Assembly: GCA_963965975.1 (NCBI GenBank) | Contig: OZ014418.1 | Location: 4,972,775 to 5,036,774 of the forward strand | DNA: 64,000 nt | Direction: 5' to 3' | From: Xestospongia bergquistia | Taxonomy: Eukaryota > Porifera > Demospongiae > Haplosclerida > Petrosiidae | Shown here: piece by piece, positions 1 through 33,900 of the stretch | How the letters are laid out: each line of letters starts with the position of its first letter | Position numbering within the stretch: the stretch's first letter is position 1 | The notes under the pieces: generated by a model | The model's input: the letters and a program-made list of their open reading frames with translations, nothing else | What the model was told of the DNA's origin: nothing | The model's database searches: none | Position numbers and translations under genes: made by a program

Positions 1-1001
1 ATAGAGTCCTTTATTCCTATCAGTTTACTTTACAAAATTCACTCAATAGTCTAAACCTTCTAATGTCTTTACATTAAAGACTTTAGAGGGTTAATGCAAA
101 CCAACTTACTAAACTGTTAATAGCAGTTTATTTCTTTAGTCCCATAGAGTCCTTTAGATTGAGCAGTTTACTTTATAAACTTTACTCAATAGTCTAAACC
201 TCATAAAGTCTTTAAGTTAAAGACTTTAGAGTGTTAATGCAAAATAACTTACAAAACTGTTAATAATAGTTTATTTAGTTAGTCCCAAAGAGTCCTTTAG
301 ACCGAGCTGTTTACTTTATAAACTTCACTCAATAGTCTAAAGCTTCTAAAGTCTTTAATTTAAAGACTTCAGAGTGTTAATGCAAACCAACTTACTAAAC
401 TGTTAATAACAGTTTATTTAGTTAGCCCAATAGAGTCCTTTAGAATGAGCAGTTTACATTAAAAAACTGACTCAATAGTCTAAACCTTCTAAAGTCTTTA
501 ATTTAAAGACTTTAGAGTCGTAATGCTAACCAACTTACTAAACTGTTAACAGCAGTTTATTTAGTTAGTTTCAAAGAGTCCTTTAGACTGACCAGTTTAC
601 TTTATAAACTTCGCTCAATAGTCTAAACCTTCTAAAGTCTTTAATTTATAGACTTTAGAGTGTTAATGCACACCAACTTACTGAACTGTTAATAGTAGTT
701 TATTTCTTTAGTCCCATAGAGTCCTTTAGACTGAGCAGTTTACTTTATAAACTTTAGTCAATAGTTTAAACCTTCCAAAGTCTTTAAATTAAAGACTTTA
801 GAGTGTTAATGCAAACGAACTTACTAAACTGTTAATAACAGTTTATTTAGTTAGTTTCATAGAGTCCTTTAGACTGACCAGTTTACTTTATAAACTTCGC
901 TCAATAGTCTAAACCTTCTAAAGTCTTTAAATTAAAGACTTTAGAGTGTTAATGCAAACCAACTTACTAAACTGTTAATAGCAGTTAATTTAGTTAGTCC
1001 C
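1..1001. repeat. seven-monomer block, short version of the higher-order repeat
   Basis: The unusual monomer with GAGTCCTTTATTCC starts at 1 and again at 1002, exactly seven monomers (1001 bp) later. The seven monomers keep the same type order as the first seven monomers of the 17-monomer block that follows. This block therefore looks like a shortened version of that unit. Confidence 0.8.
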
Positions 1002-3432
1002 ATAGAGTCCTTTATTCCTATCAGTTTACTTTACAAAATTCACTCAATAGTCTAAACCTTCTAATGTCTTTACATTAAAGACTTTAGAGCGTTAATGCAA
1101 ACCAACTTACTAAACTGTTAATAGCAGTTTATTTCTTTAGTCCCATACAGTCCTTTAGATTGAGCATTTTCCTTTATCAACTTTACTCAATAGTCTAAAC
1201 CTTATAAAGTCTTTAAGTTAAAGACTTTAGAGTGTTAATGCAAAATAACTTACAAAACTGTTAATAATAGTTTATTTAGTTAGTCCCAAAGAGTCCTTTA
1301 GACCGAGCTGTTTACTTTATAAACTTCACTCAATAGTCTAAACCTTCTAAACTCTTTAATTTAAAGACTTTAGAGTGTTAATGCAAACCAACTTACTAAA
1401 CTGTTAATAACAGTTTATTTAGTTAGCCCAATAGAGTCCTTTAGAATGAGCAGTTTACATTAAAAAACTGACTCAATAGTCTAAACCTTCTAAAGTCTTT
1501 AATTTAAAGACTTTAGAGTCTTAATGCAAACCAACTTACTAAACTGTTAACAGCAGTTTATTTAGTTAGTTTCAAAGAGTCCTTTAGACTGACCAGTTTA
1601 CTTTATAAACTTCGCTCAATAGTCTAAACCTTCTAAAGTCTTTAATTTAAAGACTTTAGAGTGTTAATGCACACCAACTTTCTGAACTGTTAATAGTGGT
1701 TTATTTCTTTAGTCCCATAGAGTCCTTTAGACTGAGCAGTTTACTTTATAAACTTTAGTCAATAGTTTAAACCTTCTAAAGTCTTTAAATTAAAGACTTT
1801 AGAGTGTTAATGCAAACGAACTTACTAAACTGTTAATAAAAGTTTATTTAGTTAGTTTCATAGAGTCCTTTAGACTGACCAGTTTACTTTATAAACTTCG
1901 ATCAATAGTCTGAACCTTCTAAAGTCTTTAATTTAAAGACTTTAGATTGTTAATGCAAACCAACTTACTGAACTGTTAATAGCAGTTTATTTCTTTAGTC
2001 CCATAGTGTCCTTTAGACTGAGCAGTTTACTTTATAAAATATACTCAATAGTTTAAACCGTCTAATGTCTTTAAATTAAAGACTTTAGAGTGTTAATGCA
2101 AACCAACTTACTAAACTGTTAATAGCAGTTAATTTAGTTAGTTCCATAGAGTCCTTTAGACCTATCTGTTTACTTTATAAACTTCACTCAATAGTCTAAA
2201 CCTTCTAAAGTCTTTAAATTAAAGACTTTAGAGTGTTAATGCAAACGAACTTACTAAACTCTTAATAGCAGTTTGTTTAGTTAGTTTCATAGAGTCCTTT
2301 AGACTGAGCAGTTTACTCTATAAACTTCGCTCAATAGTCTAAACCTTCTAAAGTCTTTAATTTAAAGACTTTAGAGTGTTAATGCAAACCAACTTACTGA
2401 ACTTTTAATAGCAGTTCATTTCTTTAGTCCCATAGAGTCCTTTAGACTTAGCAGTCTACCTTATAAACTTTACTCAATAGTCTAAACCTTCTAAAGTCTT
2501 TAAATTAAAGACTTTACAGGGTTAATGCAAACAATCTTACTGAACTGTTAATAGCAGTTTATTGAGTTTGTCCCATAGATTCCTTTAGACCTATCAGTTT
2601 ACTTTACAAACTTCACTCAATACTCTAAACCTTCTAAAGTCTTTAAATTAAAGACTTTAGAGTGTTAATGCAACCCAACTTACCAGACTGTTGATAGCAT
2701 TTTATTTATTTAGTCCCATAGACTCCTTTAGACTGAGCAGTTTACTTTATAAACTTTACTCAATAGTCTAAACCTTCTAAAGTCTTTAAATTAAAGACTT
2801 TAGAGTGTTATCGCAAACTAACTTACAAAACTGTTAATAATAGTTTATTTAGTTAGTCCCATAGAGTCCTTTAGACCGAACTGTTTACTTTATAAACTTC
2901 ACTCAATGGTCTAAACCTTCTAAACTCTTTAATTTAAAGACTTCAGAGCGTTAATGCAAACCAACTTACTAAACTGTTAATAATAGTTTATATAGTTAGT
3001 CCCTTGGAGTCCTTTAGACCTATCAGTTTACTTTACAAAATTCACTCAAAACTCTAAAGCTTCTAAAGTCTTTAATTTAAAGACTTTAGAGTGTTAATGC
3101 AAACCAACTTACTAAACTGTTAATAACAGTTTGTTTAGTTAGTTTCATAGACTCCTTGAGACTGACCAGTTTACTTTATAAACTTCGCTCAATAGTCTAA
3201 TCCTTCTAAAGTCTTTAATTTAAAGACTTTAGAGTGTTAATGCAAACAAACTTACTGAACTGTTAATAGCAGTTCATTTCCTTAGTCCCATAGAGTCCTT
3301 TAGACTGAGCAGTCTACCTTATAAACTTTACTCAACAGTCTAAACCTTCTAAAGTCTTTAAATTAAAGACTTTAGAGTGTTAATGCAAACCAACTTACTA
3401 AACTGTTAATAGCAGTTAATTTAGTTAGGCCC
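1002..3432. repeat. 17-monomer higher-order repeat, copy 1
   Basis: The diagnostic TTTATTCC monomer starts at 1002 and next at 3433. The spacing is 2431 bp, exactly 17 x 143. Other rare variants recur at the same offset, for example the CCCTTGGAGTCC unit near 3001 and again near 5431, and the GACTGTTGATAGCATT unit near 2686 and again near 5117. Confidence 0.88.
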
Positions 3433-5863
3433 ATAGAGTCCTTTATTCCTATCAGTTTACTTTACAAAATTCACTCAATAGTCTAAACCTTCTGATGTCT
3501 TTACATTAAAGACTTTAGAGCGTTAATGCAAACCAACTTACTAAACTGTTAATAGCAGTTTATTTCTTTAGTCCCATACAGTCCTTTAGATTGAGCATTT
3601 TCCTTTATCAACTTTACTCAATAGTCTAAACCTTATAAAGTCTTTAAGTTAAAGACTTTAGAGTGTTAATGCAAAATAACTTACAAAACTGTTAATAATA
3701 GTTTATTTAGTTAGTCCCAAAGAGTCCTTTAGACCGAGCTGTTTACTTTATAATCTTCACTCAATAGTCTAAACCTTCTAAACTCTTTAATTTAAAGACT
3801 TTAGAGTGTTAATGCAAACCAACTTACTAAACTGTTAATAACAGTTTATTTAGTTAGCCCAATAGAGTCCTTTAGAATGAGCAGTTTACATTAAAAAACT
3901 GACTCAATAGTCTAAACCTTCTAAAGTCTTTAATTTAAAGACTTTAGAGTCTTAATGCAAACCAACTTACTAAACTGTTAACAGCAGTTTATTTAGTTAG
4001 TTTCAAAGAGTCCTTTAGACTGACCAGTTTACTTTATAAACTTCGCTCAATAGTCTAAACCTTCGAAAGTCTTTAATTTAAAGACTTTAGAGTGTTAATG
4101 CACACCAACTTACTGAACTGTTAATAGTGGTTTATTTCTTTAGTCCCATAGAGTCCTTTAGACTGAGCAGTTTACTTTATAAACTTTAGTCAATAGTTTA
4201 AACCTTCTAAAGTCTTTAAATTAAAGACTTTAGAGTGTTAATGCAAACGAACTTACTAAACTGTTAATAAAAGTTTATTTAGTTAGTTTCATAGAGTCCT
4301 TTAGACTGACCAGTTTACTTTATAAACTTCGATCAATAGTCTAAACCTTCTAAAGTCTTTAATTTAAAGACTTTAGATTGTTAATGCAAACCAACTTACT
4401 GAACTGTTAATAGCAGTTTATTTCTTTAGTCCCATAGTGTCCTTTAGACTGAGCAGTTTACTTTATAAACTATACTCAATAGTTTAAACCTTCTAAAGTC
4501 TTTAAATTAAAGACTTTAGAGTGTTAATGCAAACCAACTTACTAAACTGTTAATAGCAGTTAATTTAGTTAGTTCCATAGAGTCCTTTAGACCTATCTGT
4601 TTACTTTATAAACTTCACTCAATAGTCTAAACCTTCTAAAGTCTTTAAATTAAAGACTTTAGAGTGTTAATGCAAACGAACTTACTAAACTGTTAATAGC
4701 AGTTTGTTTAGTTAGTTTCATAGAGTCCTTTAGACTGAGCAGTTTACTCTATAAACTTCGCTCAATAGTCTAAACCTTCTAAAGTCTTTAATTTAAAGAC
4801 TTTAGAGTGTTAATGCAAACCAACTTACTGAACTTTTAATAGCAGTTCATTTCTTTAGTCCCCTAGAGTCCTTTAGACTTAGCAGTCTACCTTATAAACT
4901 TTACTCAATAGTCTAAACCTTCTAAAGTCTTTAAATTAAAGAGTTTACAGTGTTAATGCAAACCATCTTACTGAACTGTTAATAGCAGTTTATTGAGTTT
5001 GTCCCATAGATTCCTTTAGACCTATCAGTTTACTTTATAAACTTCACTCAATACTCTAAACCTTCTAAAGTCTTTAAATTAAAGACTTTAGAGTGTTAAT
5101 GCAACCCAACTTACCAGACTGTTGATAGCATTTTATTTATTTAGTCCCATAGACTCCTTTAGACTGAGCAGTTTACTTTATAAACTTTACTCAATAGTCT
5201 AAACCTTCTAAAGTCTTTAAATTAAAGACTTTAGAGTGTTATCGCAAACTAACTTACAAAACTGTTAATAATAGTTTATTTAGTTAGTCCCATAGAGTCC
5301 TTTAGACCGAACTGTTTACTTTATAAACTTCACTCAATGGTCTAAACCTTCTAAACTCTTTAATTTAAAGACTTCAGAGCGTTAATGCAAACCAACTTAC
5401 TAAACTGTTAATAATAGTTTATATAGTTAGTCCCTTGGAGTCCTTTAGACCTATCAGTTTACTTTACAAAATTCACTCAAAACTCTAAAGCTTCTAAAGT
5501 CTTTAATTTAAAGACTTTAGAGTGTTAATGCAAACCAACTTACTAAACTGTTAATAACAGTTTGTTTAGTTAGTTTCATAGAGTCCTTGAGACTGACCAG
5601 TTTACTTTATAAACTTCGCTCAATAGTCTAAACCTTCTAAAGTCTTTAATTTAAAGACTTTAGAGTGTTAATGCAAACAAACTTACTGAACTGTTAATAG
5701 CAGTTCATTTCCTTAGTCCCATAGAGTCCTTTAGACTGAGCAGTCTACCTTATAAACTTTACTCAACAGTCTAAACCTTCTAAAGTCTTTAAATTAAAGA
5801 CTTTAAAGTGTTAATGCAAACCAACTTACTTAACTGTTAATAGCATTTTATTTAGTTAGTCCC
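3433..5863. repeat. 17-monomer higher-order repeat, copy 2
   Basis: Second copy of the 2431-bp block, nearly identical to the previous one by eye, sharing private variants such as CATTTTCCTTTATCAAC. Likeness to copy 1 is lost just before 5864. There the expected TTTATTCC monomer is replaced by one with TTTAGATCTATCAGC. Confidence 0.85.
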
Positions 5864-8800
5864 ATAGAGTCCTTTAGATCTATCAGCTTACTTTACAAAC
5901 TTCACTCAATAGTCTAAACCTTCTAAAGTCTTTAAATTAAAGACTTTAGAGTGTTAATGCAAACCAACTTACGAAACTGTTAACAGCAGTTTATTTATTT
6001 AGTTTCATAGAGTCCTTTAGAAAGAGCTGTTAACTTTGTAAACTTCACTCGATACTCTAAACCTTCTAAAGTCTTTAAATTAAAGACTTTAGACTGTTAA
6101 TGCAACCCAACTTACCAGACTGTTAATAGCAGTTTATTTCTTTAGTCCCATAGAGTCCTTTAGACTGAGCAGTTTACTTTATAAACTTTACTCAATAGTC
6201 TAAACCTTCTAAAGTCTTTAAATTAAAGACTTTAAAGTGTTATCGCAAACTAACTTACAAAACTGTTAAAAATAGTTTATTTAGTTAGTCCCATAGAGTC
6301 CTTTAGACCGAACTGTTTACTTTATAAACTTCACTCAATAGTCTAAACTTTCCAAACTCTTTAATTTAAAGACTTCAGAGCGTTAATGCAAACAAACTTA
6401 CTAAACTGTTAATAGTAGTTTATTTAGTTAGTCCCTTAAAGTCCTTTAGAATGAGCAGTTTACTTTATAAACTTCACTCAATAATCTAAGTCTTCTAAAC
6501 TCATCAATTTAAAGACTTTAAAGTGTTATTGCAAATAAACTTACAGAACTGTTAATAGCAGTTCATTTCTTTAGTCCCATAGAGTCCTTTAGACTGAGCA
6601 GTTTACTTTATAAACTTTACTCAATAGTTTAAACCTTCTAAAGTCTTTAAATTAAAGACTTTAGAGTGTTAATGCAAACCAACTTTCTAAACTGTTAATA
6701 GCAGTTTATTTCTTTAGTCCCATAGTGTGCTTTAGACTGAGCAGTTTACTTTATAAACTTTACTCAATAGTTTAAACCTTCTAAAGTCTTTAAATTAAAG
6801 ACTTTAGAGTGTTAATCCAAACAAACTTACTAAACTGTTAATAATAGTTTATTTAGTTAGTCCCATAGAGTCCTTTAGACCTCTCAGTTTACTTTACAAA
6901 CTTCACTCAATAGTCTAATCCTTCTAAAGTCTTTAAATTAAAACTTTAGAGGGTTAATGCAAACCAACTTACTAAACTAGTAATAACAGTTTATTTAGTT
7001 AGTTTCATAGAGTCCTTTAAACTGACCAGTTTACTTTATAAACTTCACTCAATAGTCTAAACTTTCAAAACTCTTTAATTTAAAGACTTTAGAGTGTTAA
7101 TGTAAACAAACTTACTGAACTTTTAATAGCAGTTTATTTCTTTAGTCCCATAGAGTCCTTTAGATTGAGCAGGTTACTTTATAAACTTTATTCAATAGTC
7201 GAAACCTTCTAAAGTCTTTAAATTAAAGAGTTTAGAGTGTTAATGCAAACCAACTTACTAAACTGTTAATAGCAGTTAATTTAGTTAGTCCCATAGAGTC
7301 CTTTAGACCTATCAGTTTACTTTACAAACTTCACTTAATAGTCTAAACCCTCTAAAGTCTTTAAATTAAAGACTTTAGAGGGTTAATGCAAACCAACTTA
7401 CTAAACTGTTAATAGCAGTTTATTTCTTTAGTCCCATAGAGTCCTTTAGACTGAGCAGTTTACTTTATAAAATTTACTCAATAGTTTAAACCTTCTAAAG
7501 TCTTTAAATTAAAGACTTTAGAGTGTTAATGCAAACCAACTTACTAAACTGTTAATAGCAGTTAATTTAGTTAGTCCCATAGAGTCCTTTAGATCTATCA
7601 GTTTACTTTACAAACTTCACTTAATAGTCTAAACCATCTAAAGTCTTTAAATTAAAGACTTTAGAGGGTTAATGCAAACCAACTTACTAAACTGTTAATA
7701 GCAGTTTACTTCTTTAGCCCCATAGAGTCCTTTAGACTGAGCAGTTTACTTTATAAACTTTACTCAATAGTTTAAACCTTCTAAAGTCTTTAATTTAAAG
7801 ACTTTAGAGTGTTATTACCAACTAACTTACTAAACTGTTAATAATAGTTTATTTAGTTAGACCCATAGAGTCCTTTAGACCTATCAGTTTACTTTACGAA
7901 CTTCACTCAATAGTCTAAAGCTTCTAAAGTCTTTAATTTAAAGACTTCAGAGTGTTAATGCAAACCAACTTGCTAAACTGTTAACAGCAGTTTATTTAGT
8001 TAGTTCCATAGAGTCGTTTAGAACTATCAGTTTACTTTACAAACTTCACTCAATAGTCTAATCCTTCTAAAGTCTTTAAATTAAAGACTTTAGAGGGTTA
8101 ATGCAAACCAACTTACGAAACTAGTAATAACAGTTTATTTAGTTAGTTCCATAGAGTCCTTTAGAACTATCAGTTTACTTTACAAACTTTACTCAATAGT
8201 CTAAACCTTCTAAAGTCTTTAAATTAAAGACTTTAGAGTGTTAATGCAAACCAACTTACTAAACTGTTAATAGCAGTTTATTTCTTTAGTCCCATAGAGT
8301 CCTTTAGACTGAGCAGTTTACTTTATAAACTTTACTCAATAGTTTAAACCTTCTAAAGTCTTTAAATTAAAGACTTTAGAGTGTTAATGTAAACCAACTT
8401 ACTAAACTGTTAATAGGAGTTAGTTTAGTTAGTCCCATACAGTCCTTTAGACCTATCAGTTTACTTTACAAACTTCACTCAATAGTCTAAACCTTCTAAA
8501 GTCTTTAAATTAAAGACTTTAGAGGATTAATGCAAACCAACTTACTAAACTGTTAATAGCAGTTTATTTCTTTAGTCCCATAGAGTCCTTTAGACTGACC
8601 ATTTTACTTTGTAAACTTTGCTCAATAGTCTAAATATTCTAAAGTCTTTAAGTTAAAGACTTTAGAGTGTTATCACAAACTAACTTACTAAACTGTTAAT
8701 AATAGTTTATTTAGTTAGTCCAATAGAATCCTTTAGACCTATCAGTTTACTTTACAAACTTCACTCAATAGTCTAAAGCTTCTAAAGTCTTAATTTAAAG

Positions 8801-10308
8801 ACTTTTGAGTGTTAATGCAAACCAACTTACTAAACTGTTAACAGCAGTTTGTTTAGTTAGTTTCATAGAGCCCTTTAGACTGAGCTGTTTACTTTATAAA
8901 CTTCACTCAATACTCTAAACCTTCTAAAGTCTTTAAATTAAAGACTTTAGAGCGTCAATGCAAACCAACTTACTAAACCGTTAATAGCAGTTTATTTCTT
9001 TAGTCCCATAGAGTCCTTTAGATTGAGCAATTTACTTTATAAACTTTACTCAATAGTCTAAAGCTTCTAAAGTCTTTAAATTAAAGACTTTAGAGTGTTA
9101 ATGTAAACTAACTTACTAAACAGTTAATAATAGTTTATTTAATTAGTCCCAAAGAGTCCTTTGAAATGAGCAGTTTACTTTAGAAAACTGACTGAATAGT
9201 CTAAACCTTTTAAAGTCTTTAAATTAAAGACTTTACAGTGTTAATACCAACCAACTTACTTAATTGTTAATAGCAGTTTATTTAGTTAGTCCCATAGAGT
9301 TCTTTAGACCTATCAGTTTACTCTACAAAATTCACTCAATAGTCTAAACCTTCTAAAGTCTTTAAATTAAAGACTTTAGAGTGTTAATGGAAACAAACTT
9401 ACTAAACTGTTAATAGCAGTTTATTTAGTTAGTCCCATACAGTCTTTTAGACTGAGCAGTTTACTTTATAAACCTTACTCAATAGTCTAAACCTTCTAAA
9501 GTCTTTAAATTAAAGACTTTAGAGGGTTATCGCAAACTAAATTACTAAACTATTAATAACATTTTTGTTAGTTAATCCCATAGAGTCCTTTAGACCGAGT
9601 TGTTTACTTTATAAACTTCTATCAAAAGTCTAAACCTTCTAAACTCTTTAATTTAACGACTTCAGAGTGTTAATGCAAACCAACTTACTAAACTGTTATT
9701 AGCAGTTTAATTAGTCCCATAGAGTCCTTTAGAATGAGCAGTTTACTTTATAAAATTTACTCAATAGTCTAAACCTTCTAGTCTTTAAATTAAATATTTT
9801 AGTGTGTAAATGCAAACTAACTTACTAAACTGTTAATAACAGTTTATATAGTTAGTTTCATAGAGTCCTTTAGACTGACCAGTTTACTTTATAAACTTCG
9901 CTCAATAGTCTAAACTTTCTAAACTATTTAATTTAAAGACTTTAGAGTGTTAATGCAAACCAACTTACTGAACATTTAATAGCAGTTTATTTCTTTAGTC
10001 CCATAGAGTCCTTTAGAGTGAGCATTTTACTTTATAAATATTACTCAATAGTCTAAACATTCTAAAGTCTTTAAATTAAAAACTTTAGAGTGTTAATGTA
10101 AACCAACTTACTAAACTGTTAATAGCAGTTTATTTCTTTAGTCCCATAGAGTCCTTTAGACCTATAAGTTTACTTTATAAATTTTACTCAATAGTCTAAA
10201 CCTTCTAAAGTCTTTAAATTAAAGACTTTAGAGTGTTAATGCAAACCAACTTACTAAACTGTTAATAGCAGTTTATTTAGTTAGTCCCATACAGTCCTTT
10301 AGACCTAT

Positions 10309-10313
10309 CAGTT
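10309..10313 (+). repeat. target-site duplication CAGTT, left
   Basis: The satellite reads CTATCAGTT up to 10313 and resumes with CAGTTTACTT at 11324. The intact monomer is CTATCAGTTTACTT, so CAGTT was duplicated on insertion. The right copy is 11324-11328. Confidence 0.8.
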
Positions 10314-11323
10314 CAGGGGTGGAGACAGGTACTGAAAAGTGGGGGGGCCAAGTGCTTAGTGAAGAATCAGATAGATGTAAATGAAAATCTTATTTTAAAA
10401 AAAATTCACTAGTTCAGCATATAGAAGGTCACAAGCTTCATAATACTGGTGGCGATGGTAGTCTTTCGGTGTTGTGTATCGATGTTGTTCACTCGTTTTC
10501 AAATCGTGAAGGATGTTTTCTATATCATGGTAAGTCTGGCTGATTAATGGAATGTTTTTCAGCAAGACTGGTTGACTCATCATAAAATCTGTTGAAAGCT
10601 TCATCTGATCGTATTCTTTTATAGTAAGATTTTGCTGCTTCCACTGCAGTAAAAGCGTCTAGAAGGCTTATGTCTTTTTTTGGAGAGTTAGTGAAAGCTG
10701 TTCTGCCATGCTGAATAAGAGATGGCAAAGCCGAAGGCAAAACAAGCTGTTGAACTTCTCCAAGCTTTGCTGTAAACCACCAGCTTTCATTCCATGAAGA
10801 TCGAGTTGCTGTTTACCACTCAGGTTTTGGATTCCTGATGCAGGAGAGCCATAGTTGTCTTCATTGCCCTCAGATCTTATCCTCTTGCAAGACCAGACAG
10901 AAAGCAAACTTTGTTGTCTTTGCCTTTTTGCCATTATATCTCTCAGTCATTCTTTAACTTAGCCAGCTGCCTTTTAATAACCACATGTGATAGCATAATG
11001 TATAGTGTAAATGGTTCATCCCATGAGATCACTTTGACCAATTATTAAATAATGTCATACTCTCTTAACAATTGTCACACTTTGCTTCTTTGAGCAATTA
11101 ACTTTAGCATACCAAATCGTGAATGTCATTGATTCTTATACAGCTGGTTGATTGTTTGATTAATCAAATTATTTTTCACCCAGTTTGTTAGTGAGGAGTG
11201 GAATTCATCATGCATACTTCTATATCACACAGTCAAAAATCAAACAGTAAGGGGGCAGAGCCCCCCCACTTTCAAAAGTGAGGGGCTCCAGCCCCCCCTG
11301 CCCCCCCTAGTTCTCCACCACTG
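10314..11323 (-). mobile_element. internally deleted hAT-type DNA transposon inside the satellite
   Basis: A 1010-bp non-satellite insertion. Its ends are CAGGGGTGGAGA on the left and TCTCCACCACTG on the right, which are 11 of 12 inverted matches. Just inside lie G-rich subterminal stretches: GAAAAGTGGGGGGGC on the left and its near-complement on the right. Flanks carry the 5-bp duplication CAGTT. Most hAT elements make 8-bp duplications, but some animal hAT groups make 5-bp ones. The minus strand carries remains of a transposase. Terminal motif, duplication and coding remains together support hAT. The element is too short and broken to be autonomous. Confidence 0.85.
10395..10934 (-). pseudogene. 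hAT transposase remnant (TTF/ZMYM1-like type)
   Basis: On the minus strand an ATG at 10934 opens with MAKRQRQQSLLSVWSCKR, typical of the basic N-terminus of TTF-zinc-finger/ZMYM1-like hAT transposases. The coding sequence then passes, with frame changes, to a region containing LLDAFTAVEAAKSYYKR, and then to TPKDYHRHQYYEACDLL, which resembles the middle of the same proteins. The TTF zinc finger, most of the RNase H-like catalytic core and the C-terminal dimerisation region are absent. At least one frameshift separates the pieces. It cannot encode an active transposase. The family call comes from memory of conserved sequence style. Confidence 0.7.
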
Positions 11324-20300: not shown

Positions 20301-23300
20301 CATAGAGTCCTTTAGACCGAGCTGTTTATCTTATAAACTTCACTCAATAGTCTAAACATTCTAAACTCTTTAATTTAAAGACTTCAGAGTTTTAATGTAA
20401 ACCAACTTACTGAACTTTTAATAGCAGTTTATTACTTTAGTCCCATACAGTCCTTTAGATTGAGCAGTTTACTTTATAAACTTTACTCAATAGTCTAAAC
20501 CTTCTAAAGTCTTTAAATTAAAGACTTTAGAGTGTTAATGCAAACCAACTTACTAATCTGTTAATAGCAGTTTATTTCTTTAGTCCCATAGTGTCCTTTA
20601 GACTGAGCAGTTTACTTTATAAACTTTACTCAATAGTCTAAACCTTCTAAAGTCTTTAAATTAAAGACTTTAGAGTGTTAATGCAAACCAACTTACTAAA
20701 CTGTTAATAGCAGTTTATTTCTTTAGTCCCATAGTGTCCTTTAGACTGAGCAGTTTACTTTATAAACTTTACTCAATAGTTTAAACCTTCTAAAGTCTTT
20801 AAATTAAAGACTTTAGAGTGTTAATGCAAACCAACTTACTAAACTGTTAATAGCAGTTAATTTAGTTAGTCCCATAGAGTCCTTTAGAATGAGCAGTTCA
20901 CTTTAAAAAAATGACTCAATAGTCTAAACCTTCTAAACTCTTTAAATAAAGGACTTTAGAGTGTTAATGCAAACCAACTTACTAAACTGTTAATAACAGT
21001 TTATTTAGTTAGTTTCATAGAGTCCTTTAGACTGACCAGTTTACTTTATAAACTTCGCTCAATAGTCTAAACCTTCTAAAGTCTTTAATTGAAAGACTTT
21101 AGAGTGTTAATGGAAACCAACTTACTGAACTGTTAATAGCAGTTCATTTCTTTAGTCCCATAGAGTCCTTTAGACTGAGCAGTCTACCTTATAAACTTTA
21201 CTCAACAGCCTAAACCTTCTAAAGTCTTTAAATTAAAGACTTTAAAGTGTTAATGCGAACCAACTTACTGAACTGTTAATAGCAGTTTATTTCTTTAGTC
21301 CCATAGAGTCCTTTAGACTGAGCAGTTTACTTTATAAACTTTACTCAATAGTTTAAACCTTCTAAAGTCTTTAAACTAAAGACTTTAGAGTGTTAATGCA
21401 ATCCAACTTACTAAACTGTTAATAGCAGTTAATTTAGTTAGTCCCATAGAGTCCTTTAGACCTATCAGTTTACTTTACAAACTTCACTCAATAGTCTAAA
21501 CCTTCTAAAGTCTTTAAATTAAAGACTTTAGAGGGTTAATGCAAACCAACTTACTAAACTGTTAATAACAGTTTATTTCTTTAGTCCCATAAAGTCTTTT
21601 AGACTGAGCAGTTTACTTTATAAACTTTACTCAATAGTCTAAACCTTGTAAACTCTTTAAATTAAAGACTTTAGAGTGTTATCACAAACAAACTTACTAA
21701 ACTGTTAATAATAGTTTATGTAGTTAGTCCTATAGAGTCCTTTAGACCTATCAATTTACTTTACAAACTACACTCAATAGTCTAAAGCTTCTAAAGTCTT
21801 TAATTTAATGACTTTTGAGTGTTAGTGCAAACCAACTTACTAAACTGTTAAAAGCAGTTTATTTAGTTAGTTTCATAGAGCCCTTTAGACTGAGCTTTTT
21901 ACTTTATAAACTTCACTCAATACTCTAAACCTTCTAAAGTCTTTAAATTAAAGACTTTAGAGCGTTAATGCAAACCAACTTACTAAACTGTTAATAGCAG
22001 TTTATTTCTTTAGTCCCATAGAGTCCTTTAGACTGAGCAGTTTAGTTTATAAACTTTACTCAATAGTCTGAACTTTCTAAAGTCTTTAAAGTAAAGACTT
22101 TAGAGTGTTAATGCAAACTAACTTAGAAAACTGTTAATAATAGTTTATTTAGTTAGTCCCAAAGAGTCCTTTAGACCGAGCTGTTTACTTTATAAACTTT
22201 ACTCAATAGTCTAAACCTTCTAAACTCTTTAATTTAAAGACTTTAGAGTGTCAATGCAAACCAACTTACTAAAGGTGTAATAAGAGTTTATTTAGTTAGT
22301 TTCATAGAGTCCTTTAGACTTACCAGTTTACTTTATAAACTTCACTCAATAGTCTAAACTTTCAAAAATTTTTAATCTAAAGACTTTAGAGTGTTAATGG
22401 AAACAAACTTACTGAACTTTTAATAGCAGTTTATTTCTTTAGTCCCATAGAGTCCTTTAGACTGAGCAGTTTACTTTATAAACTTTACTCAATAGTTTAA
22501 AACTTCTAAAGTCTTTAAATTAAAGACTTTAGAGTGTTAATGGAAACTAACTTACGAAACTGTTAATAGTAGTTTATTTCTTTAGTCCCGTAGAGTCCTT
22601 TAGACTGAGTAGTTTACTTTATAAACTTTACTAAATAGTCTAAACCTTCTAAAGTCTTTAAATTAAAGACTTTAGAGTGTTAATGCAGACTAACTTACAA
22701 AAATGTTAATAATACTTTATTTAGTTAGTTCCAAAGAGTCCTTTAGACCGAGCTGTTTACTTTATAAACTTCACTCAATAGTCTAAACCTTCTAAACTCT
22801 TTAATTTAAAGACTTCAGAGTGTGAATGCAAACCAACGTACTAAACTGTTAATAACAGTTTATTTAGTTAGCCCCATAGAGTCCTTTAGAATGAGCAGTT
22901 TACTTTAAAAAACTGACTCAATAGTCTAAACCTTCTAAAGTCTTTAAATTAAAGACTTTAGAGTGTTAATGCAAACGAACTTATTAAACTGTTAATAACA
23001 GTTTATTTAGTTAGTTTCATAGAGTCTTTTAGACTGACCATTTTACTTTATAAACTTCGCTCAATAGTCTAAACATTCTAAAGTCTTTAAATTAAAGACT
23101 TTAGAGGGTTAATGCAAACCAACTTACTAAACTGTTAAAAGCAGTTTATTTCTTTAGTCCCATAGAGTCCTTTAGACTGAGCAGTTTACTTTATAAACTT
23201 TACTCAATAGTTTAAACCTTCTAAAGTCTTTAAATTAAAGACTTTAGAGTGTTAATGCAAACCAACTTACGAAACTGTTAATAGCAGTTAATTTAGTTAG

Positions 23301-26300
23301 TCCCATAGAGTCCTTTAGACCTATCAGTTTACTTTACAAACTTCACTCAATAGTCTAAACATTCTAAAGTCTTTAAATTAAAGACTTTAGAGGGTTAATG
23401 CAAACCAACTTACTAAACTGTTAATAGCAGTTTATTTCTTTTGTCCTATAGAGTCCTTTAGACTGAGCAGTTTACTTTATAAACTTTACTCAATAGTCTA
23501 AACCTTCTAAAGTCTTTAAATTAAAGACTTTAGAGTGTTATCACAAACTAACTTACTAAACTGTTAATAATACTTTATTTAGTTAGTCCCATAGAGTCCT
23601 TTAGACTGATCAGTTTACTTTACAAACTTTACTCAATAGTCTAAACCTTCTAAAGTCTTTAAATTAAAGACTTTAGAGTGTTATCACAAACTAACTTACG
23701 AAACTGTTAATAATAGTTTATTTAGTTAGTCCCATAGAGTCCTTTAGACCGATCAGTTTACTTTACAAACTTCACTCAATAGTCTAAAGCTTCTAAAGTC
23801 TTTAAATTAAAGACTTTTGAGTGTTAATGCAAACCAACTTACTAAACTGTTAACAGCAGTTTATTTAGTTAGTTTCATAGAGTCCTTTAGAATGACCATT
23901 TTACTTTATAAACTTCGCTCAATAGTCTAAAAATTCTAAAGTCTTTAATTTAAGACGTTTGAGTGTTAATGCAAACCAACTTACTGAACTGTTAATAGCA
24001 GTTCATTTCTTTAGTCCCATAGAGTCCTTTAGAGTGAGCAGTCTTCCTTATAAACTTTACTCAATAGTCTAAACCTTCTGAAGTCTTTAAATTAAAGACT
24101 TTAAAGTGTTAATGCAAACCAACTTACTAAACTGTTAATAGCACTTTATTTCTCTAGTCCCATTGAGTCCTTTAGACTGAGCAGTTTACTTTATAATCTT
24201 TACTCAATAGTTCAAACCTTCTAAAGTGTTTAAGTTAAAGACTTTAAGTGTTAATGCAAACCAACTTACTAAACTGTTAATAGCAGTTTATTTAGTTAGT
24301 TCCATAGAGTCCTTCAGAACTATCAGTTTACTTTACAAACTTCACTCAATAGTCTAATCCTTATAAAGTCTTTAAATTAAAGACTTTAGAGGGTTAATGC
24401 AAACCAACTTACTAAACTAGTAATAACAGTTTATTTAGTTAGTTTCATAGAGTCCTTTAGACTGAACAGTTTACTTTATAAACTTCACTCAATAGTCTAA
24501 ACTTTCAAAATTCTTTAATTTAAAGACTTTAGAGTGTTAATGTAAACCAACTTACTGAACTTTTAATAGCAGTTTATTTCTTTAGTCCCATAGAGTCCTT
24601 TAGATTGAGCAGTTTCCTTATAAACTTTACTCGATAGTCTAAACCTTCTAAAGTCTTTAAATTAAAGACTTTAGAGTGTTAATGCAAACCAACTTACTAA
24701 ACTGTTAATAGCAGTTTATTTCGTTAGTCCCATAGAGTCCATTAGACTGAGCAGTTTACTTTATAAACTTTACTCAATAGTTTAAACCTTCTAAAGTCTT
24801 TAAATTAAAGACTTTAGAGTGTTAATGCAAACCAACTTACTAAACTGTTAATAGCAGTTAATTTAGTTAGTCCCATAGAGTCCTTTAGACCTATCAGTTT
24901 ACTTTACAAACTTCACTCAATAGTCTAAACATTCTAAAGTCTTTAAATTAAAGACTTTAGAGGGTTAATGCAAACCAACTTACTAAACTGTTAAAAGCAG
25001 TTTATTTGTTTAGTCCCATAGTGTCCTTTAGACTGAGCAGTTTACTTTATAAACTTTACTCAATAGTTTAAACCTTCTAAAGTCTTTAAATTAAAGACTT
25101 TAGAGTGTTAATGCAAACCAACTTACTAAACTGTTAATAGCAGTTTATTTCGTTAGTCCCATAGAGTCCATTAGACTGAGCAGTTTACTTTATAAACTTT
25201 ACTCAATAGTTTAAACCTTCTAAAGTCTTTAAATTAAAGACTTTAGAGTGTTAATGCAAACCAACTTACTAAACTGTTAATAGCAGTTAATTTAGTTAGT
25301 CTCATAGAGTCCTTTAGACTTATCAGTTTACTTTACAAACTTCACTCAATAGTCTAAACATTCTAAAGTCTTTAAATTAAAGACTTTAGAGGGTTAATGC
25401 AAACCAACTTACTAAACTGTTAAAAGCAGTTTATTTGTTTAGTCCCATAGTGTCCTTTAGACTGAGCAGTTTACTTTATAAACTTTACTCAATAGTCTAA
25501 ACCTTCTAAAGTCTTTAATTTAAAGACTTTAGAGTGTTAATGTAAACCAACTTACTGAACTTTTAATAGCAGTTTATTTCTTTAGTCCCATAGAGTCCTT
25601 TAGATTGAGCAGTTTCCTTATAAACTTTACTCGATAGTCTAAACCTTCTAAAGTCTTTAAATTAAAGACTTTAGAGTGTTAATGCAAACCAACTTACTAA
25701 ACTGTTAATAGCAGTTTATTTCGTTAGTCCCATAGAGTCCATTAGACTGAGCAGTTTACTTTATAAACTTTACTCAATAGTTTAAACCTTCTAAAGTCTT
25801 TAAATTAAAGACTTTAGAGTGTTAATGCAAACCAACTTACTAAACTGTTAAGAGCAGTTAATTTAGTTAGTCCCATAGAGTCCTTTAGACCTATCAGATT
25901 ACTTTACAAACTTCACTCAATAGTCTAAACATTCTAAAGACTTTAAATTAAAGACTTTAGAGGGTTAATGCAAACCAACTTACTAAACTGTTAAAAGCAG
26001 TTTATTTGTTTAGTCCCATAGTGTCCTTTAGACTGAGCAGTTTACTTTATAAACTTTACTCAATAGTTTAAACCTTCTAAAGTCTTTAAATTAAAGACTT
26101 TAGAGTGTTAATGCAAACCAACATACTAAACTGTTAATAGCAGTTAATTTAGTTAGTCCCAAAGAGTCCTTTAGACCTATCAGTTTACTTTACAAACTTC
26201 ACTCTATAGTCTAAACATTCTAAAGTCTTTAAATTAAAGACTTTAGGGGGTTAATGCAAACCAACTTACTAAACTGTTAATAGCAGTTTATTTCTTTAGT

Positions 26301-29300
26301 CCCATAGAGTACTTTAGACTGATCAGTTTACTTTATAATCTTTACTCAATAGTCTAAACCTTCTAAAGTCTTTAAATTAAAGACTTTAGAGTGTTATCAC
26401 AAACTAACTCACTAAACTGTTAATAATAGTTTATTTAGTTCGTCCCATAGAGTCCTTTAGACCGATCAGTTTACTTTACATACTTCACTCAATAGTCTAA
26501 AGCTTCTAAAGTCTTTAATTTAAAGACTTTTGAGCGTTAATGCAAACCAACTTACTAAACTGTTAACAGCAGTTTATTTATTTAGTTTCATAGAGCCCTT
26601 TAGACTGAGGTGTTTACTTTATAAACTTCACTCAATACTCTATACCTTCTAAAGTCTTTAAATTAAAGAGTTTAGAGCGTTAATGCAAACCAAATTACTA
26701 AACTGTTAATAGCAGTTAATTTCTTTAGTCCCATAGAGTCCTTTAGACTGAGCAGTTTACTTTATAAACTTTACTCAATAGTCTAAACGTTCTAAAGTCT
26801 TTAAATTAAAGACTTTAGAGTGTTAATGCAAACAAACTTACAAAACTGTTAATAATATTTTATTTAGTTAGTCCCAAAGAGTCCTTTAGACCGAACTGTT
26901 TACTTTATAAACTTCACTCAATAGTCTAAACCTTCTAAACTCTTTAATTTAAAGACTTCAGAGTGTTAATGCAAACTAACTTACTAAACTGTTAATAACA
27001 GTTTATTTAGTTAGCCCCATAGAGTCGTTTAGACTGAGCAGTTTACTTTAAAAAACTGACTCAATAGTCTAAACCTTCTAAAGTCTTTAAATTAAAGACT
27101 TTAGAGTGTTAATTCCAACCAACTTACTAATTTGTTAATAGCAGTTTATTTAGTTAGTCCCATAGAGTCGTTTAGACCTATCAGTTTACTTTACAAACTT
27201 CACTCAATAGTCTAAACCTTCTAAAGTCTTTAAATTAGAGACTTTAGAGTGTTAATGGAAACCAACTTACTAAACTGTTAATAGTAGTTTATTTAGTTAG
27301 TCCCATACAGTCTTTTAGACTGAGCAGTTTACTTTATAAACTTTACTCAATAGTCTAAACCTTCTAAAGTCTTTAAATTAAAGACTTTAGAGTGTTATCG
27401 CAAACTAACTTGCTAAACCGTTAATAAGATTTTATTTAGTTAGTCCCATAGAGTCCTTTAGACCGAGTTGTTTACTTTATAAACTTCACGCAAAAGTCTA
27501 AACCTTCTAAACTCTTTAATTTAAAGACTTCAGAGTGTTAATGCAAACCAACTTACTAAACTGTTATTAGCAGTTTAATTAGTCCCATAGAGTCCTTTAG
27601 AATGAGCAGTTTATTTTATAAAATTTATTCAATAGTCTAAACCTTCTAGTCTTTAAATTAAATATTTTATAGTGTACATGCAAACCAACTTACTAAACTG
27701 TTAATAACAGTTTATTTATTTAGTTTCATAGAGTCCTTTAGACTGACCAGTTTACTTTATAACCTTCACTCAATAGTCTAAACTTTCTAAACTCTTTTAT
27801 TTAAAGTCTTTAGAGTGTTAATGCAAACCAACTTACTGAACTTTTAATAGCAGTTTATTTCTTTAGTCCCATGGTGTCCTTTAGATTGAGCAGTTTACTT
27901 TATAAACATTACTCAATAGTCTAAACCTTCTAAAGTCTTTAAATTAAAAACTTTAGAGGGTTAATGCAAACCAACTTACTAAACTGATAATAGCAGTTTA
28001 TTTCTTTAGTCCCATAGAGTCCTTTAGACTGAGCAGTTTACTTTATAAACTTTACTCAATAGTTTAAACCTTCTAAAGTCTTTAAATTAAAGACTTTAGA
28101 GTGTTAATGCAAACCAACATACTAAACTGTTAATAGCTGTTTACTCAGTTAGTCCCATAGAGTCCTTTAGACCTATCAGTTTACTTTATAAACTTTATTC
28201 AATAGTTTAAACCTTCTAAAGTCTTTAAATTAAAGACTTCTGAGTGTTAATGCAAACCAACTTACTAAACTGTTATTAGCAGTTTAATTAGTTAGTCCCA
28301 TAGAGCCCTTTAGAATGAGCAGTTTATTTTATGAAATTTACTCAATAGTCTAAACCTTCTAAAGTCTTTAAATTAAAGGCTTTAGAGTGTTAATGCAAAC
28401 CAACTTACTAAACTGTTAATAGTAGTTTATTTCTTTAGTCCCATAGAGTCCTTTAGACTGAGCAGTTTACTTTATAAAATTTACTCAATAGTTTAACCCT
28501 TCTAAAGTCTTTAAATTAAAGACTTTAGAGTGTTAATGCAAACCAACTTACTAAACTGTTAATAGCAGTTTATTTAGTTAGTCCCAAAGATTCCTTTAGA
28601 CCTATCAGTTTACTTTACAAACCTCACTCAATAGTCTAATCCTTCTAAAGTCTTTAAATTAAAGACTTTAGAGGGTTAATGCAAACCAACTCACTAAACT
28701 AGTAATAACAGTTTATTTAGTTAGTTTCATAGAGTCCTTTAGACTGACCAGTTTACTTTATAAACTTCACTCAATAGTCTAAACTTTCAAAACTCTTTAA
28801 TTTAAAGACTTTAGAGTGTTAATGTAAACCAACTTACTGAACTTTTAATGGCAGTTTATTTCTTTAGTCCCATAGAGTCCTTTAGATTGAGCAGTTTACT
28901 TTATAAACTTTACTCAATAGTCTAAACCTTCTAAAGTCTTTAATTTAAAGACTTTAGAGAGTTAATGCAAACCATCTTACTAAACTGTTAATAGCAGTTT
29001 ATTTCTTTAGTCCCATAGAGTCCTTTAGACTGAGCAGTTTACTTTATAAACTTTACTCAATAGTTTAAACCTTCTAAAGTCTTTAAATTAAAGACCTTAG
29101 TGTGTGAATGCAAACCAACTTACTAAACTATTAATAGCAGTTAATTTAGTTAGTCCCATAGAGTCCTTTAGAATGAGCAGTTTACTTTAAAAAACTGACT
29201 CAATAGTCTAAACCTTCTAAAGTCTTTAAATTAAAGACTTTAGAGTGTTAATGCAAACGAACTTACAAAACTGTTAATAACAGTTTATTTAGTTAGTTTC

Positions 29301-32300
29301 ATAGAGTCATTTAGACTGACCAGTTTACTTTATAAACTTCGCTCAATAGTCTAAACCTTCTAAAGTCTTTAATTTAAAGACTTTAGAGTGTTAATGCAAA
29401 CGAACTTACTGAACTGTTAATAGCAGTTTATTTCTTTAGTCCCAAAGAGTCCTTTAGGCTGAGCAGTTTACTTTATAAACTTTACTCAATAGTTTAAACC
29501 TTCTAAAGTCTTTAAATTAAAGACTTTAGAGTGTCAATGCAAACAACTTACTAAACTGTTAATAGTACTTAATTTAGTTAGTCCCATAGATTCCTTTAGA
29601 CCTATCAGTTTACTTTACAAACTTCACTCAATAGTCTAAACCTTCTAAAGTCTTTAAATTAAAGACTTTAGAGGGTTAATGCAAACCAACTTACTAAACT
29701 GTTAATAGCAGTTTATTTCTTTAGTCCAATAGAGTCTTTTAGACTGAGCAGTTTACTTTATAATCTTTACTCAATAGTCTAAACCTTCTAAAGTCTTTAA
29801 ATTAAAGACTTTAGAGCGTTATCACAAACTAACTTCCTAAACTGTTAATAATAGTTTATTTAGTTAGTCCCATAGAGTCCCTTAGACCTATCAGTTTACT
29901 TTACAAACTTCACTCAATAGTCTAAAGCTTCTAAAGTCTTTAATTGAAAGACTTCAGAGTGTTAATGCAAACCAACTTACTAAACTGTTAACAGCAGTTT
30001 ATTTAGTTAGTTTCATAGAGCCCTTTTGACTGAGCTGTTTATTTTATAAACTTCACTCAATACTCTAAACCGTCTAAAGTCTTTAAATTAAAGACTTTAG
30101 AGCGTTAATGCAAACCAACTTACTAAACCGTTAATAGCAGTTTATTTCTTTAGTCCCATAGAGTCCTTTAGATTGAGCAATATACTTTATAAACATTACT
30201 CAATAGTGTAAACCTTCTAAAGTCTTTAAATTAATGACTTTAGAGTGTTAATGCAAACTAACTTACAAAAACGTCAATAATAGTTTATTTAGTTAGTCCC
30301 AAAGAGTCCTTTAGACCGAGCTGTTTACTTTATAAACTTCACTCAATAGTCTAAACCTTCTAAAGTCTTTAATTTAAAGACTTTAAAGTGTTAATGCAAA
30401 CCAACTTACCAAACTGTTAATAACAGTTTATTTAGTTAGCCCAATAGAGTCCTTTAGAATGATCAGTTTACTTTAAAAAACTGACTCAATAGTCTAAACC
30501 TTCTAAAGTCTTTAAATTAAAGACTTTAGAGTGTTAATGCAAACGAACTTACTAAACTGTTAATGACAGTTTATTTAGTTAGTTTCATATAGTCCTTTAA
30601 ACTGACCAGTTTACTTTATAAACTTCGCTTAATAGTCTAAACCTTCTAAAGTCTTTAATTTAAAGACTTTAGAGTGTTAATGCAAACCAACTTACTGAAC
30701 TTTTAATAGCAGTTCATTTCTTTAGTCCCATAGAGTCCTTTAGACTGAGCAGTCTACCTTATAAACTTTACTCAATAGTCTAAACCTTCTAAAGTCTTTA
30801 AATTAAAGACTTTAAAGTGTTAATGCAAACCACCTTACTGAACTGTTAATAGCAGTTTATTTAGTTAGTGCCATAGAGTCCTTTAGACTTATCAGTTTAC
30901 TTTACAAACTTCACTCAATAGTCTAAACCTTCTAAAGTCTTTAAATTAAAGACTTTTGAGTGTTAATGCAAGCCAACTTACGAAACTTTTAATAGCAGTT
31001 TATTTAGTTAGTTTCATGGAGTCTTTAGAAAGAGCTGTTTACTTTGTAAACTTCACTCAATACTCTAAACCTTCTAAAGTCTTTAAATTAAAGACTTTAG
31101 AGTGTTAATGCAACCCAACTTACCAGACTGTTAATAGCAGTTTATTTCTTTAGTCCCATAGGGTCCTTTAGACTGAGCAGTTTACTTTATAAACTTTACT
31201 CAATAGTCTAAACTTTCTAAAGTCTTTAAATTAAAGACTTTAGAGTGTTATCGCAAACTAACTTACAAAACTGTTAATAATAGTTTATTTAGTTACTCCG
31301 ATAGAGTCCTTTAGACCGAACTGTTTACTTTATAAACTTCACGCAATAGTCTAAACCTTCTAAACTCTTTAATTTAAAGACTTCAGAGCGTTAATGCCAA
31401 CCAACTTACTAAACTGTTAATAGCAGTTTATTTAGTTAGTCCCATAAAGTCCTTTAGAATGAGCAGTTTACTTTATAAACTTCACTTAATAGTCTAAACC
31501 TTCTCAACTTTTCAATTTAAAGACTTTAGAGTGTTAATGCCAACCAACTTACTGAACTGTTAATAGCAGTTCATTTCTTTAGTCTCATAGAGTCCTTTAG
31601 ACTGAGCAGTTTACTTTATAAACTTTACTCAATAGTCTAAACCTTCTAAAGTCTTTAAATTAAAGACTTTAGAGTCTTAATGCGAACCAACTTACTAAAC
31701 TGTTAATAGCAGTTTATTTCTTTAGTCCCATAGAGTCCTTTAGACTGAGGAGTTTACTTTATAAACTTCACTCAATAGTCTAATCCTTCTAAAGTCTAAA
31801 TTTAAAAACTTTAAATTAAAGACTTTAGAGCCTTAATGCAAACCAACTTCATAAACTGTTAATTGCAGTTTATTTACTTAGTCCATTAAAGTCCATTAGT
31901 TTGAGGAGTTTACTTTATAAACTTCACTCAATAATCTAAAACTTCTAAAGTCTTTAAATTAAAGACTTCAGAGCATTAATGCAAACCAACTTAATAAAAT
32001 GTTAATTGCAATTTATTTTGTTAGTCCCTTTTAATCCTTTAGTCTGAGTAGTTTACTTTGTAAACTTCACTCAATAGCCTAAATATTCTAAAGTCTTTAA
32101 ATTAAAGACTTTAGAGCGTTAATGCAAACTAACTTAATGAACTGTTAATTTCATTTTATTCTGTTAGTCCCTTTAAGTCCTTTAGTCTGAGCAGTTTACT
32201 TTATAAACTTCACTCAATAGTCTAAACCTTCTAAAGTCTTTAAATGGAAGACTTTATAGCGTTAATGCAAACCACCTTAATAAGCTGTTAATTGCAGTTT

Positions 32301-33533
32301 ATTTTGTTAGTCCCTTTAAGTCCTTTAGTCTGAGCAGTTTACTTCATAAACCTCTCTCAATAGTCTAAACCATCTAAAGTCTCTAAATTAAAGACTTTAG
32401 AGCATTTACGGAAATAAATTGTTAATTGCACTTTATTTAGTTAGTCCCTTTAAGTCCTTTAGTCTGAGCAGTTTACTTTATGAACTTCACTTAATAGTCT
32501 AAACCTTCTAAAGTCTTTAAATTAAAGACTTCAGAGCGTTAATGCAAACCAACTTACTAAACTCTTAATTGCAGTTTATTTAGTTAGTCCCTTTAAGTCC
32601 ATTAGTCTGAGGAGTTTACTTTATAAACTTCACTCAATAGTCTAAACCTTCTAAATTCTTTTAATTAAAGACTTTAGAGCGTTAATGCAAGCGAACTTAA
32701 TAAACTGGTAATTGCAGTTTATTTTGTTAGTCCCTTTAAGTCATTTAGTCTGAGCATTTTACTTCATAAACTTCCCTCATTAGTCTAAACCATCTAAAGT
32801 CTTGAAATTAAAGACTTTAGAGTGTTAATGCAAACCAACTTAATAAATTGTTAATTGCACTTTATTTAGTTAGTCCCTTTAAGTGCTTTAGTCTCAGCAG
32901 TTTACTTTATAAACTTCACTTAGTAGTCTAAACCTTCTAAAGACTTTAAATTAAAGACTTTAGAGCGTTATTGCAAACAAACTTTATAAATTGTTAATTG
33001 CAATTTTTTTTGTTATTCCCTTTAAGTCCTTTAGTCTGAGAAGTTTACTTTATAAACTTCCCTCATTAGTCTAGACCTTCTAAAGTCTTTAAATTAAAGA
33101 CTTTAGAGCGTTAATGCAAACCACATTCATAAACTGTTAATTGCAGTTTATTTACTTAGTCCATTAAAGTCCTTTAGTCTGAGGAGTTTACTTTATAAAC
33201 TTCACTCAATAATCTAAATCTTCTAAAGTCTTTAAATTAAAGACTTCAGAGCGTTAATGTAAACCAACTTAATAAACTGTTAATTGCAGTTTATTTAGTG
33301 AGTCCCTTTTAATCCTTTAGTCTGAGTAGTTTACTTTATAAACTTCACTCAATAGCCTAAACCTTCTAAAGTCTTTAAATTAAAGACTTTAGAGTGATGT
33401 TGCAAACCAACATAATAAACTGTTAATTGCAGTATTTTTAGTTAGTCCGCTTAAGTCGTCTAGTCTTAGCAGTTCGCTTTATAAATTTCACTCAATAATC
33501 TAAACCTTTTGAAGTCTTTAAATATAGCAAGTG
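11324..33533. repeat. 143-bp AT-rich satellite array, right segment
   Basis: The same satellite continues in the same orientation and monomer phase after the transposon. It runs to 33533, where it ends inside the monomer palindrome. Local higher-order patterns are visible. A four-monomer period of 572 bp links the ACTTCTTTCA variants at 17481 and 18053. A three-monomer spacing of 429 bp links the GAGTCCATTAGAC variants near 24732 and 25161. An approximately six-monomer period links variants near 11522 and 12378. No gene or other insertion is seen within this stretch. Confidence 0.98.
31794..33533. repeat. divergent edge subfamily of the satellite
   Basis: From about 31794 the monomers change type. 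CCCATAGAGTCC becomes CCCTTTAAGTCC, TTAGACTGAG becomes TTAGTCTGAG, and TTAATAGCAGTTTA becomes TTAATTGCAGTTTA. About 12 monomers of this kind form the right edge, with more small deletions, for example near 32401-32420. Diverged monomers at the flank of an array are usual where homogenisation is weaker. Confidence 0.85.
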
Positions 33534-33558
33534 ATTTCAATCTTTGAGGCAATATAGT

Positions 33559-33572
33559 GTTGTCATAGCAAC
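33559..33572 (+). promoter_or_regulatory. RFX X-box-like palindrome, copy 1
   Basis: GTTGTCATAGCAAC matches the RFX X-box layout (GTTGCC, two bases, GGCAAC) with one change in each half. It recurs in the second copy of the tandem duplication. No gene start is adjacent, so it may be fortuitous. Confidence 0.35.
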
Positions 33573-33900
33573 CATATTGACCTGGTGAGTTGATACATGT
33601 TGTAACAATCTCTTCACTGGTAATTGTAACAATATATTAGGAATATAAGCCTTGGTAGAGAGTATACCACCAGCTGTACACCATTAACAGTTGAGAACAT
33701 CACTAGAACATAAATTCAAATTGTAAGGTCTTCAAAGTGATTGTTTGTTCTTAGATCCACATAATCAAAATTCCATTGTTGTATGCCAAATTGTCCAATT
33801 TAATTTCATTTAGTTTCATTGAAATATTGAATTAGCTGGTCTGCTTGTGGTACATCTGGAGCCTCTGGTCAAACAGCAAACTGCTTGGAGGCAATATAGT

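What the first reader, a model, noticed from the sequence alone, without database searches (positions are those of the whole stretch)
1..33533. Nucleosome-sized satellite in which every monomer carries a near-perfect 29-bp palindrome
The 143-bp monomer contains TCTAAAGTCTTTAA, one A or T, then TTAAAGACTTTAGA. It also has two smaller dyads (AGTTTA/TAAACT and TAAACTG/CAGTTTA). About 227 copies keep these dyads despite point changes elsewhere. Regular dyads at nucleosome spacing could form cruciforms or bind a dimeric protein, as proposed for some centromeric satellites. I see no CENP-B box.
Basis: partly seen in the sequence, partly recalled or inferred. Interest (0 to 1): 0.75.

Follow-up and report, generated by a model that had tools for sequence, protein, structure and literature searches.

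The report
Sponge centromere-like satellite with conserved palindrome
A 143-base repeat carrying a 29-base palindrome is massed in one interior region of each of the 15 chromosomes of a sponge, which makes it the likely DNA of the sponge's centromeres; the palindrome is the steadiest part of the repeat in most, but not all, of its versions.

Summary
In detail: window 1-33523 is an array of a 143-bp monomer (227 aligned copies) with a 29-bp palindrome; 105 of 227 copies keep all 14 arm pairs. The genome is a demosponge's: 15 chromosomes, 146.5 Mb. The repeat was seen on 15 of 15 chromosomes, in one interior region each as far as the capped hit lists show; one three-copy island on C1 lies far off, and one C5 hit 0.77 Mb off. 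I estimate about 46,000 copies (4.5% of the genome). That is a centromeric satellite's distribution; no chromatin data were available.

Three suprachromosomal families (A, B, C) and an edge layer (D) differ at 15 consensus sites; the only one inside the palindrome is its unpaired centre. Arms diverge 3.5% against 5.8% elsewhere, the lowest of 143 circular placements. This holds in A and B (and 11 D copies), not in C. Arm pairs show no compensation (24 double changes, 23.4 expected), so sequence recognition fits better than a cruciform. The smaller dyads are broken in B or C. No CENP-B box and no 10-bp WW phasing were found; a CENP-C search found nothing. Arrays switch orientation. Four searches found no sponge centromeric satellite in print.

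The parts
1..33523 (+). 143-bp satellite array (family A on C8), continuing beyond the window's left edge; its right boundary is here
   Evidence: TRF; 227 monomers; C8 satellite also at 4631001-4632500 (L056) and 4800001-4810000 (L041)
10204..10232 (.). example of an exact 29-bp palindrome TCTAAAGTCTTTAA-A-TTAAAGACTTTAGA (consensus positions 59-87)
22..38 (.). position of smaller dyad 1 (AGTTTA/TAAACT) in the first monomer; this copy has changes in the right half; in family B the consensus keeps 4 of 6 pairs
110..130 (.). position of smaller dyad 2 (TAAACTG/CAGTTTA) in the first monomer; in family C the consensus keeps 6 of 7 pairs
31886..33449 (+). edge layer (family D), 11 monomers sharing T1, T3, A4, T15, C89, A109, T122; palindrome arms 3.6% divergent, rest 8.2%
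10314..11322 (.). insert in the array with terminal inverted repeats CAGGGGTGGAGA...TCTCCACCACTG, flanked by CAGTT on both sides; hAT-like by eye
   Evidence: class recalled, not searched

Best explanation
This is the main centromeric (or centromere-core plus pericentromeric) satellite of a demosponge. Shown: a 143-bp head-to-tail monomer, found on all 15 chromosomes, in one interior region of about 0.13 to 0.94 Mb each, in three suprachromosomal families with a diverged layer at the sampled edges of C8 and C10, and with orientation switches inside arrays. Inferred: the arrays carry the kinetochore chromatin, one nucleosome per monomer, and are kept alike by unequal exchange, conversion or break-induced copying, with young families replacing older ones from the core outward. 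Inferred with less confidence (about 0.35): the 29-bp palindrome is a symmetric recognition site for a dimeric DNA-binding protein that helps place or stabilise centromeric chromatin, in the way CENP-B does on its own box, but with a different site. The confidence given is for the centromeric-satellite part.
For: Hits were listed in part: 100 rows each, 100 of 140, 100 of 121; others (64 of 64; 46 of 46) are complete. Together they reach all of C1-C15, each within one region lying between 0.29 and 0.79 of the chromosome length. 13 of 15 blind 10-kb samples from those regions were satellite; the two misses (C13, C14) gave satellite in a second sample. Family consensus differs by chromosome: A on C8, C12; B on C1, C2, C3, C9; C on C4-C7, C10, C11, C15, and C on C13. 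15 family-level consensus differences, only site 73 (unpaired centre) inside the palindrome; chance of 0 of 14 others in the 28 arm sites 0.039, 0.014 if 4 chromosome-level differences are added. Arms 3.5% against 5.8%, rank 1 of 143 circular placements, base-matched permutation p 0.0024; with unique monomers 3.6% against 5.5%, rank 1, p 0.008. Family D, 11 copies: 3.6% against 8.2%.
Against: No CENP-A, H3K9me3, FISH or Hi-C data. Samples on C13 (3.60 Mb) and C14 (2.90 Mb) inside the regions hold no satellite, so the regions are interrupted and the functional site could be elsewhere in them. One C1 island of 3 copies at 1.55 Mb and one C5 hit at 3.69 Mb, 0.77 Mb from the next listed, lie off the main regions. 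The CENP-C_C family found nothing in this genome at E <= 0.001, which may be introns or divergence. For the palindrome: family C shows no arm constraint (rank 58 of 143, p 0.55) and on C10, C11 and C15 the arms vary slightly more than the rest; no compensatory changes; copies in an array are not independent, so the permutation p values are only a guide. No 10-bp WW periodicity in the consensus (p 0.81).
Confidence: 0.82

Rival explanations
1. Cruciform model: the palindrome (and the other dyads) matter as DNA structure, extruding hairpins that attract a CENP-A chaperone, as proposed for satellites without CENP-B boxes.
For: Strong hairpin potential (whole monomer z -5.31, 29-mer z -5.47, dyad 2 z -5.35, dyad 1 region z -3.08). 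No CENP-B box. The review PMC8997354 (passages seen) describes dyads in centromeres of many taxa.
Against: Double changes at arm pairs are as many as independence gives (24 against 23.4), and 9 of the 24 are complementary, 5 of them the same pair change at 59/87. Two family-fixed changes break dyad 1 and one breaks dyad 2.
Confidence: 0.2
2. Passenger: the palindrome is an accident of the ancestral monomer's origin, kept by homogenisation, and its low divergence is partly base composition and mutational bias.
For: Absent constraint in family C. Base matching shrinks the contrast: A 2.9% in arms against 4.2% outside, T 3.3% against 4.6%. Array copies are not independent.
Against: Rank 1 of 143 placements over all samples, low arm divergence in A, B and D separately, and consensus arms identical in A, B, C and D while 14 other sites changed.
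Confidence: 0.4
3. Pericentromeric heterochromatin satellite: the arrays flank or surround the centromere, but kinetochore chromatin sits on the non-satellite islands or another repeat.
For: Non-satellite DNA at C13:3.60 Mb and C14:2.90 Mb inside the regions; CENP-A on non-array islands is known in flies (recalled).
Against: 13 of 15 blind samples were array, and the same repeat serves every chromosome.
Confidence: 0.25

Closest known systems
Primate alpha-satellite (suprachromosomal families, CENP-B box / n box)
   Same: Nucleosome-sized monomer, one region per chromosome, families shared by sets of chromosomes, older layers at the edge, local dimers (L053, L055), one short element of the monomer steadier than the rest in some families. 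Suprachromosomal families and edge layers as described in PMC8997354 (passages).
   Different: 143 bp not 171 (recalled); no CENP-B box in the window; no sequence relation known; the conserved element is a 29-bp symmetric palindrome; no regular HOR in the window (mean identity by lag 0.876-0.888 for lags 1-30, with a small excess at lag 17).
Satellites with dyad symmetries proposed to form non-B DNA (review PMC8997354; also PMC9070824, listing only)
   Same: Dyads in monomers of centromere-linked repeats that lack CENP-B boxes.
   Different: The dyads described there are short (<10 bp; passage); here the arm is 14 bp, and pairing is not kept by compensation.
Tribolium madens TmSat1/TmSat2 macro-dyads (PMC13081366, passages)
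   Same: Orientation switches inside putative centromeric arrays on several chromosomes.
   Different: Insect repeat with ~110-bp subunits and 704-bp monomer; here I saw only 3 of 20 non-mitochondrial region samples with a switch and cannot say how large the inverted blocks are.

Membership tests
Centromeric satellite DNA | Long tandem array of near-identical monomers | tested here: met
   33.5 kb in the window, period 143; 13 of 15 blind 10-kb samples elsewhere are array
Centromeric satellite DNA | One region on each chromosome at the primary constriction | tested here: inconclusive
   One interior region on 15 of 15 chromosomes from capped or rare-variant hit lists; constriction itself not testable; small outliers on C1 and perhaps C5
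Centromeric satellite DNA | Bound by CENP-A nucleosomes | not testable with these tools
   needs ChIP or CUT&RUN
CENP-B-box satellites | 17-bp CENP-B box | tested here: not met
   0 matches with up to 3 mismatches in the window; other chromosomes' samples not searched for it
Cruciform-type centromere repeats | Dyads able to fold | tested here: met
   z -5.31 for the monomer, 0 of 200 shuffles as good
Cruciform-type centromere repeats | Pairing kept by selection (compensatory changes) | tested here: not met
   24 double changes against 23.4 expected in 1122 monomers x 14 pairs

The most novel reading that the evidence does not exclude
A sponge has its own CENP-B-like system: a dimeric protein reads the 29-bp palindrome on nearly every monomer of every centromere, so that animals of the earliest branches already used sequence-read, symmetric centromere boxes; family C arrays are a version that is escaping or replacing that system.
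Probability: 0.2. Interest if true: 0.8.

Novelty: new member of a known kind. Interest (0 to 1): 0.52.

Why it matters
I found no sponge centromeric satellite in the held library (searches; most subscription papers are not held). A satellite that marks one region on each of 15 chromosomes gives a ready probe for sponge centromeres, lets family turnover be compared with alpha-satellite in a very distant animal, and offers a concrete 29-bp bait for finding a centromere DNA-binding protein outside the better-studied animals and fungi.

Tried and rejected
Viral contigs hold no match to the 27-base palindrome core. Species naming: genome-size text search gave nothing relevant; the paper on Xestospongia muta (PMC12398682; passages and the assembly-statistics section) has 15 chromosomes and an 18.99-kb mitochondrion like this genome, but a different total (158.52 Mb) and chromosome sizes (largest 35.36 Mb against 28.17), so I say only demosponge, perhaps a relative of that genus. 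Amphimedon queenslandica was considered from memory and not confirmed. Nucleosome phasing by WW dinucleotides: none. Regular higher-order repeats in the window: none clear. Inversion junctions lying in dyads: of 5 switch points seen in L035, L037 and L052, two lie in dyad 2 and one in the palindrome, but the dyads cover about 47% of the monomer, so this means little. A first low-threshold monomer count counted wrong-strand matches because of the palindrome and was replaced; the 3-kb loci L002-L031 were used only for orientation, not in divergence counts. In one search, 12 edge monomers of the window were dropped before the family A figures.

Full report
What is there. Window 1-33523 is a tandem array of a 143-bp monomer (TRF: 234.5 copies; 227 monomers aligned, mean identity 92.8%), interrupted by an insert at 10314-11322. 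Each monomer has a 29-bp palindrome at consensus 59-87; 105 of 227 copies keep all 14 arm pairs.

Where it comes from. The window is C8:4972775-5036774 of a 146,460,797-bp assembly in 21 contigs. Contig lengths show 15 chromosomes (28.17 to 5.40 Mb), five small contigs of 23-98 kb and an 18,997-bp C21 carrying a full COX1 with TGA read as tryptophan. I read the COX1 as a demosponge's from memory; it was not compared with a database. The karyotype and mitochondrial length resemble Xestospongia muta in PMC12398682 (passages and one section read), but sizes differ.

Genome distribution. Exact palindromes with an A/T centre: 10,362 sites. With a C centre followed by G: 1,999 forward plus 4,309 reverse. 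Dividing by the fraction of sampled monomers that match (272 of 626 in families A and B; 135 of 484 in C) gives about 46,000 copies, 6.6 Mb, 4.5% of the genome; this assumes the samples are representative. Hit lists are capped at 100 rows, so I used rare single-base variants of the palindrome to sample the whole genome: searches (100 of 140 listed; 100 of 121; 64 of 64; 46 of 46), with the first 100 rows. They reach C1-C15. On each chromosome the hits lie in one region, between 0.29 and 0.79 of its length, 0.13 to 0.94 Mb wide, 8.2 Mb in all. No listed hit falls on C16-C20. Exceptions: C1:1545660, a three-copy island, and C5:3685885, 0.77 Mb from the next listed hit (left out of the C5 extent).

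Families. 15 samples of 10 kb (one per chromosome) gave arrays on 13; C13 and C14 samples held none. Second samples on both gave satellite. Consensus differences: family A on C8 and C12; B on C1, C2, C3, C9 (T22, T34, T73, A123); C on C4-C7, C10, C11, C15 (A4, T41, C73, C89, T102, T125, G141), and C13 by L051. C12 shares T22 with B. The last 11 monomers before the window's array edge form family D (T1, T3, A4, T15, C89, A109, T122); copies with T1, T3, A4 and A109 recur at the left edge sample of C10 (L054), and mostly so in the C1 island (L001). Samples L053 (C14) and L055 (C10 flank) alternate two monomer types, a dimer (read by eye).

Palindrome constraint. 15 family-level consensus sites differ; only 73, the unpaired centre, is in the palindrome. 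The chance that none of the other 14 falls in the 28 arm sites is 0.039; adding four chromosome-level differences (32, 40, 134, 135) it is 0.014. Over 1122 monomers, measured against each chromosome's own consensus, arms diverge 3.5% and the rest 5.8%; of 143 circular placements of the same shape the palindrome ranks lowest, and a base-matched permutation gives p 0.0024. By family with unique monomers: A 3.2% against 7.5%, rank 1, p 0.002; B 2.9% against 5.8%, rank 11, p 0.006; C 4.2% against 4.4%, rank 58, p 0.55. So the constraint is not universal. Columns in an array are not independent observations.

Structure or sequence. In 1122 monomers x 14 pairs, 1054 cells are changed on one side, 24 on both, with 23.4 expected under independence; 9 of 24 are complementary, 5 of these being one change at 59/87. 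The smaller dyads lose pairs in family B (dyad 1, 2 of 6) and C (dyad 2, 1 of 7). Folding potential is nevertheless strong. I therefore lean to a sequence-read site over an extruded cruciform, with a passenger origin as the nearest rival.

Other features. No CENP-B box in the window. No WW periodicity near 10-11 bp (p 0.81). Arrays switch orientation: L035 (C2), L037 (C4, three switch points) and L052 (C14). The CENP-C_C Pfam family found nothing at E <= 0.001, which I treat as uninformative.

Literature. Searches for sponge satellite or centromere papers: 0 papers; 5; the two sponge-genome papers among them, PMC7385117 and PMC10280926, mention 'centromer' once each and 'satellite' never; 1, on transposons, listing only; 3, none on sponges by title, listing only. 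Dyad symmetries at centromeres are well known (PMC8997354, PMC13081366; passages). Hence a new member of a known kind, in a phylum where I found none described.

Noticed in passing
window 10314-11322: Insert with 12-bp terminal inverted repeats (CAGGGGTGGAGA / TCTCCACCACTG) and CAGTT on both sides, G/C-run ends; looks like a hAT-type non-autonomous element inside the satellite.
   Followed up: partly
window 36682-40604 (+): Spaced open frames with ankyrin repeats (Pfam hits in 3 of 3 tested), probably exons of one ankyrin-repeat gene only about 3 kb from the array edge.
   Followed up: partly
window 49628-50023 and 61495-61785 (-): C-terminal and N-terminal pieces of a Mat89Bb-family protein (PF10221), likely one gene across 12 kb, within 30 kb of the array.
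   Followed up: no
window 45318-45506 (-): Reverse-transcriptase RNase H fragment (PF17917), a retrotransposon remnant.
   Followed up: no
window 33545-34215: About 330-bp unit repeated twice in tandem right next to the array boundary (seen by eye).
   Followed up: no
window 34535-34709: 95-bp unit, 1.8 copies, with TTGATCTCATGGGA repeats.
   Followed up: no
G000:C6:3154917-3155898 and 3199148-3200446: COX1-like pieces with stops in the nuclear chromosome C6, probably mitochondrial insertions.
   Followed up: no
L001 1285-1739 (G000:C1 about 1.545 Mb): Three-monomer island of the satellite far from the C1 cluster, mostly of the edge (D-like) type.
   Followed up: partly
L037 6790-6969: A 180-bp inverted piece of satellite inside an otherwise opposite-strand array.
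   Followed up: partly
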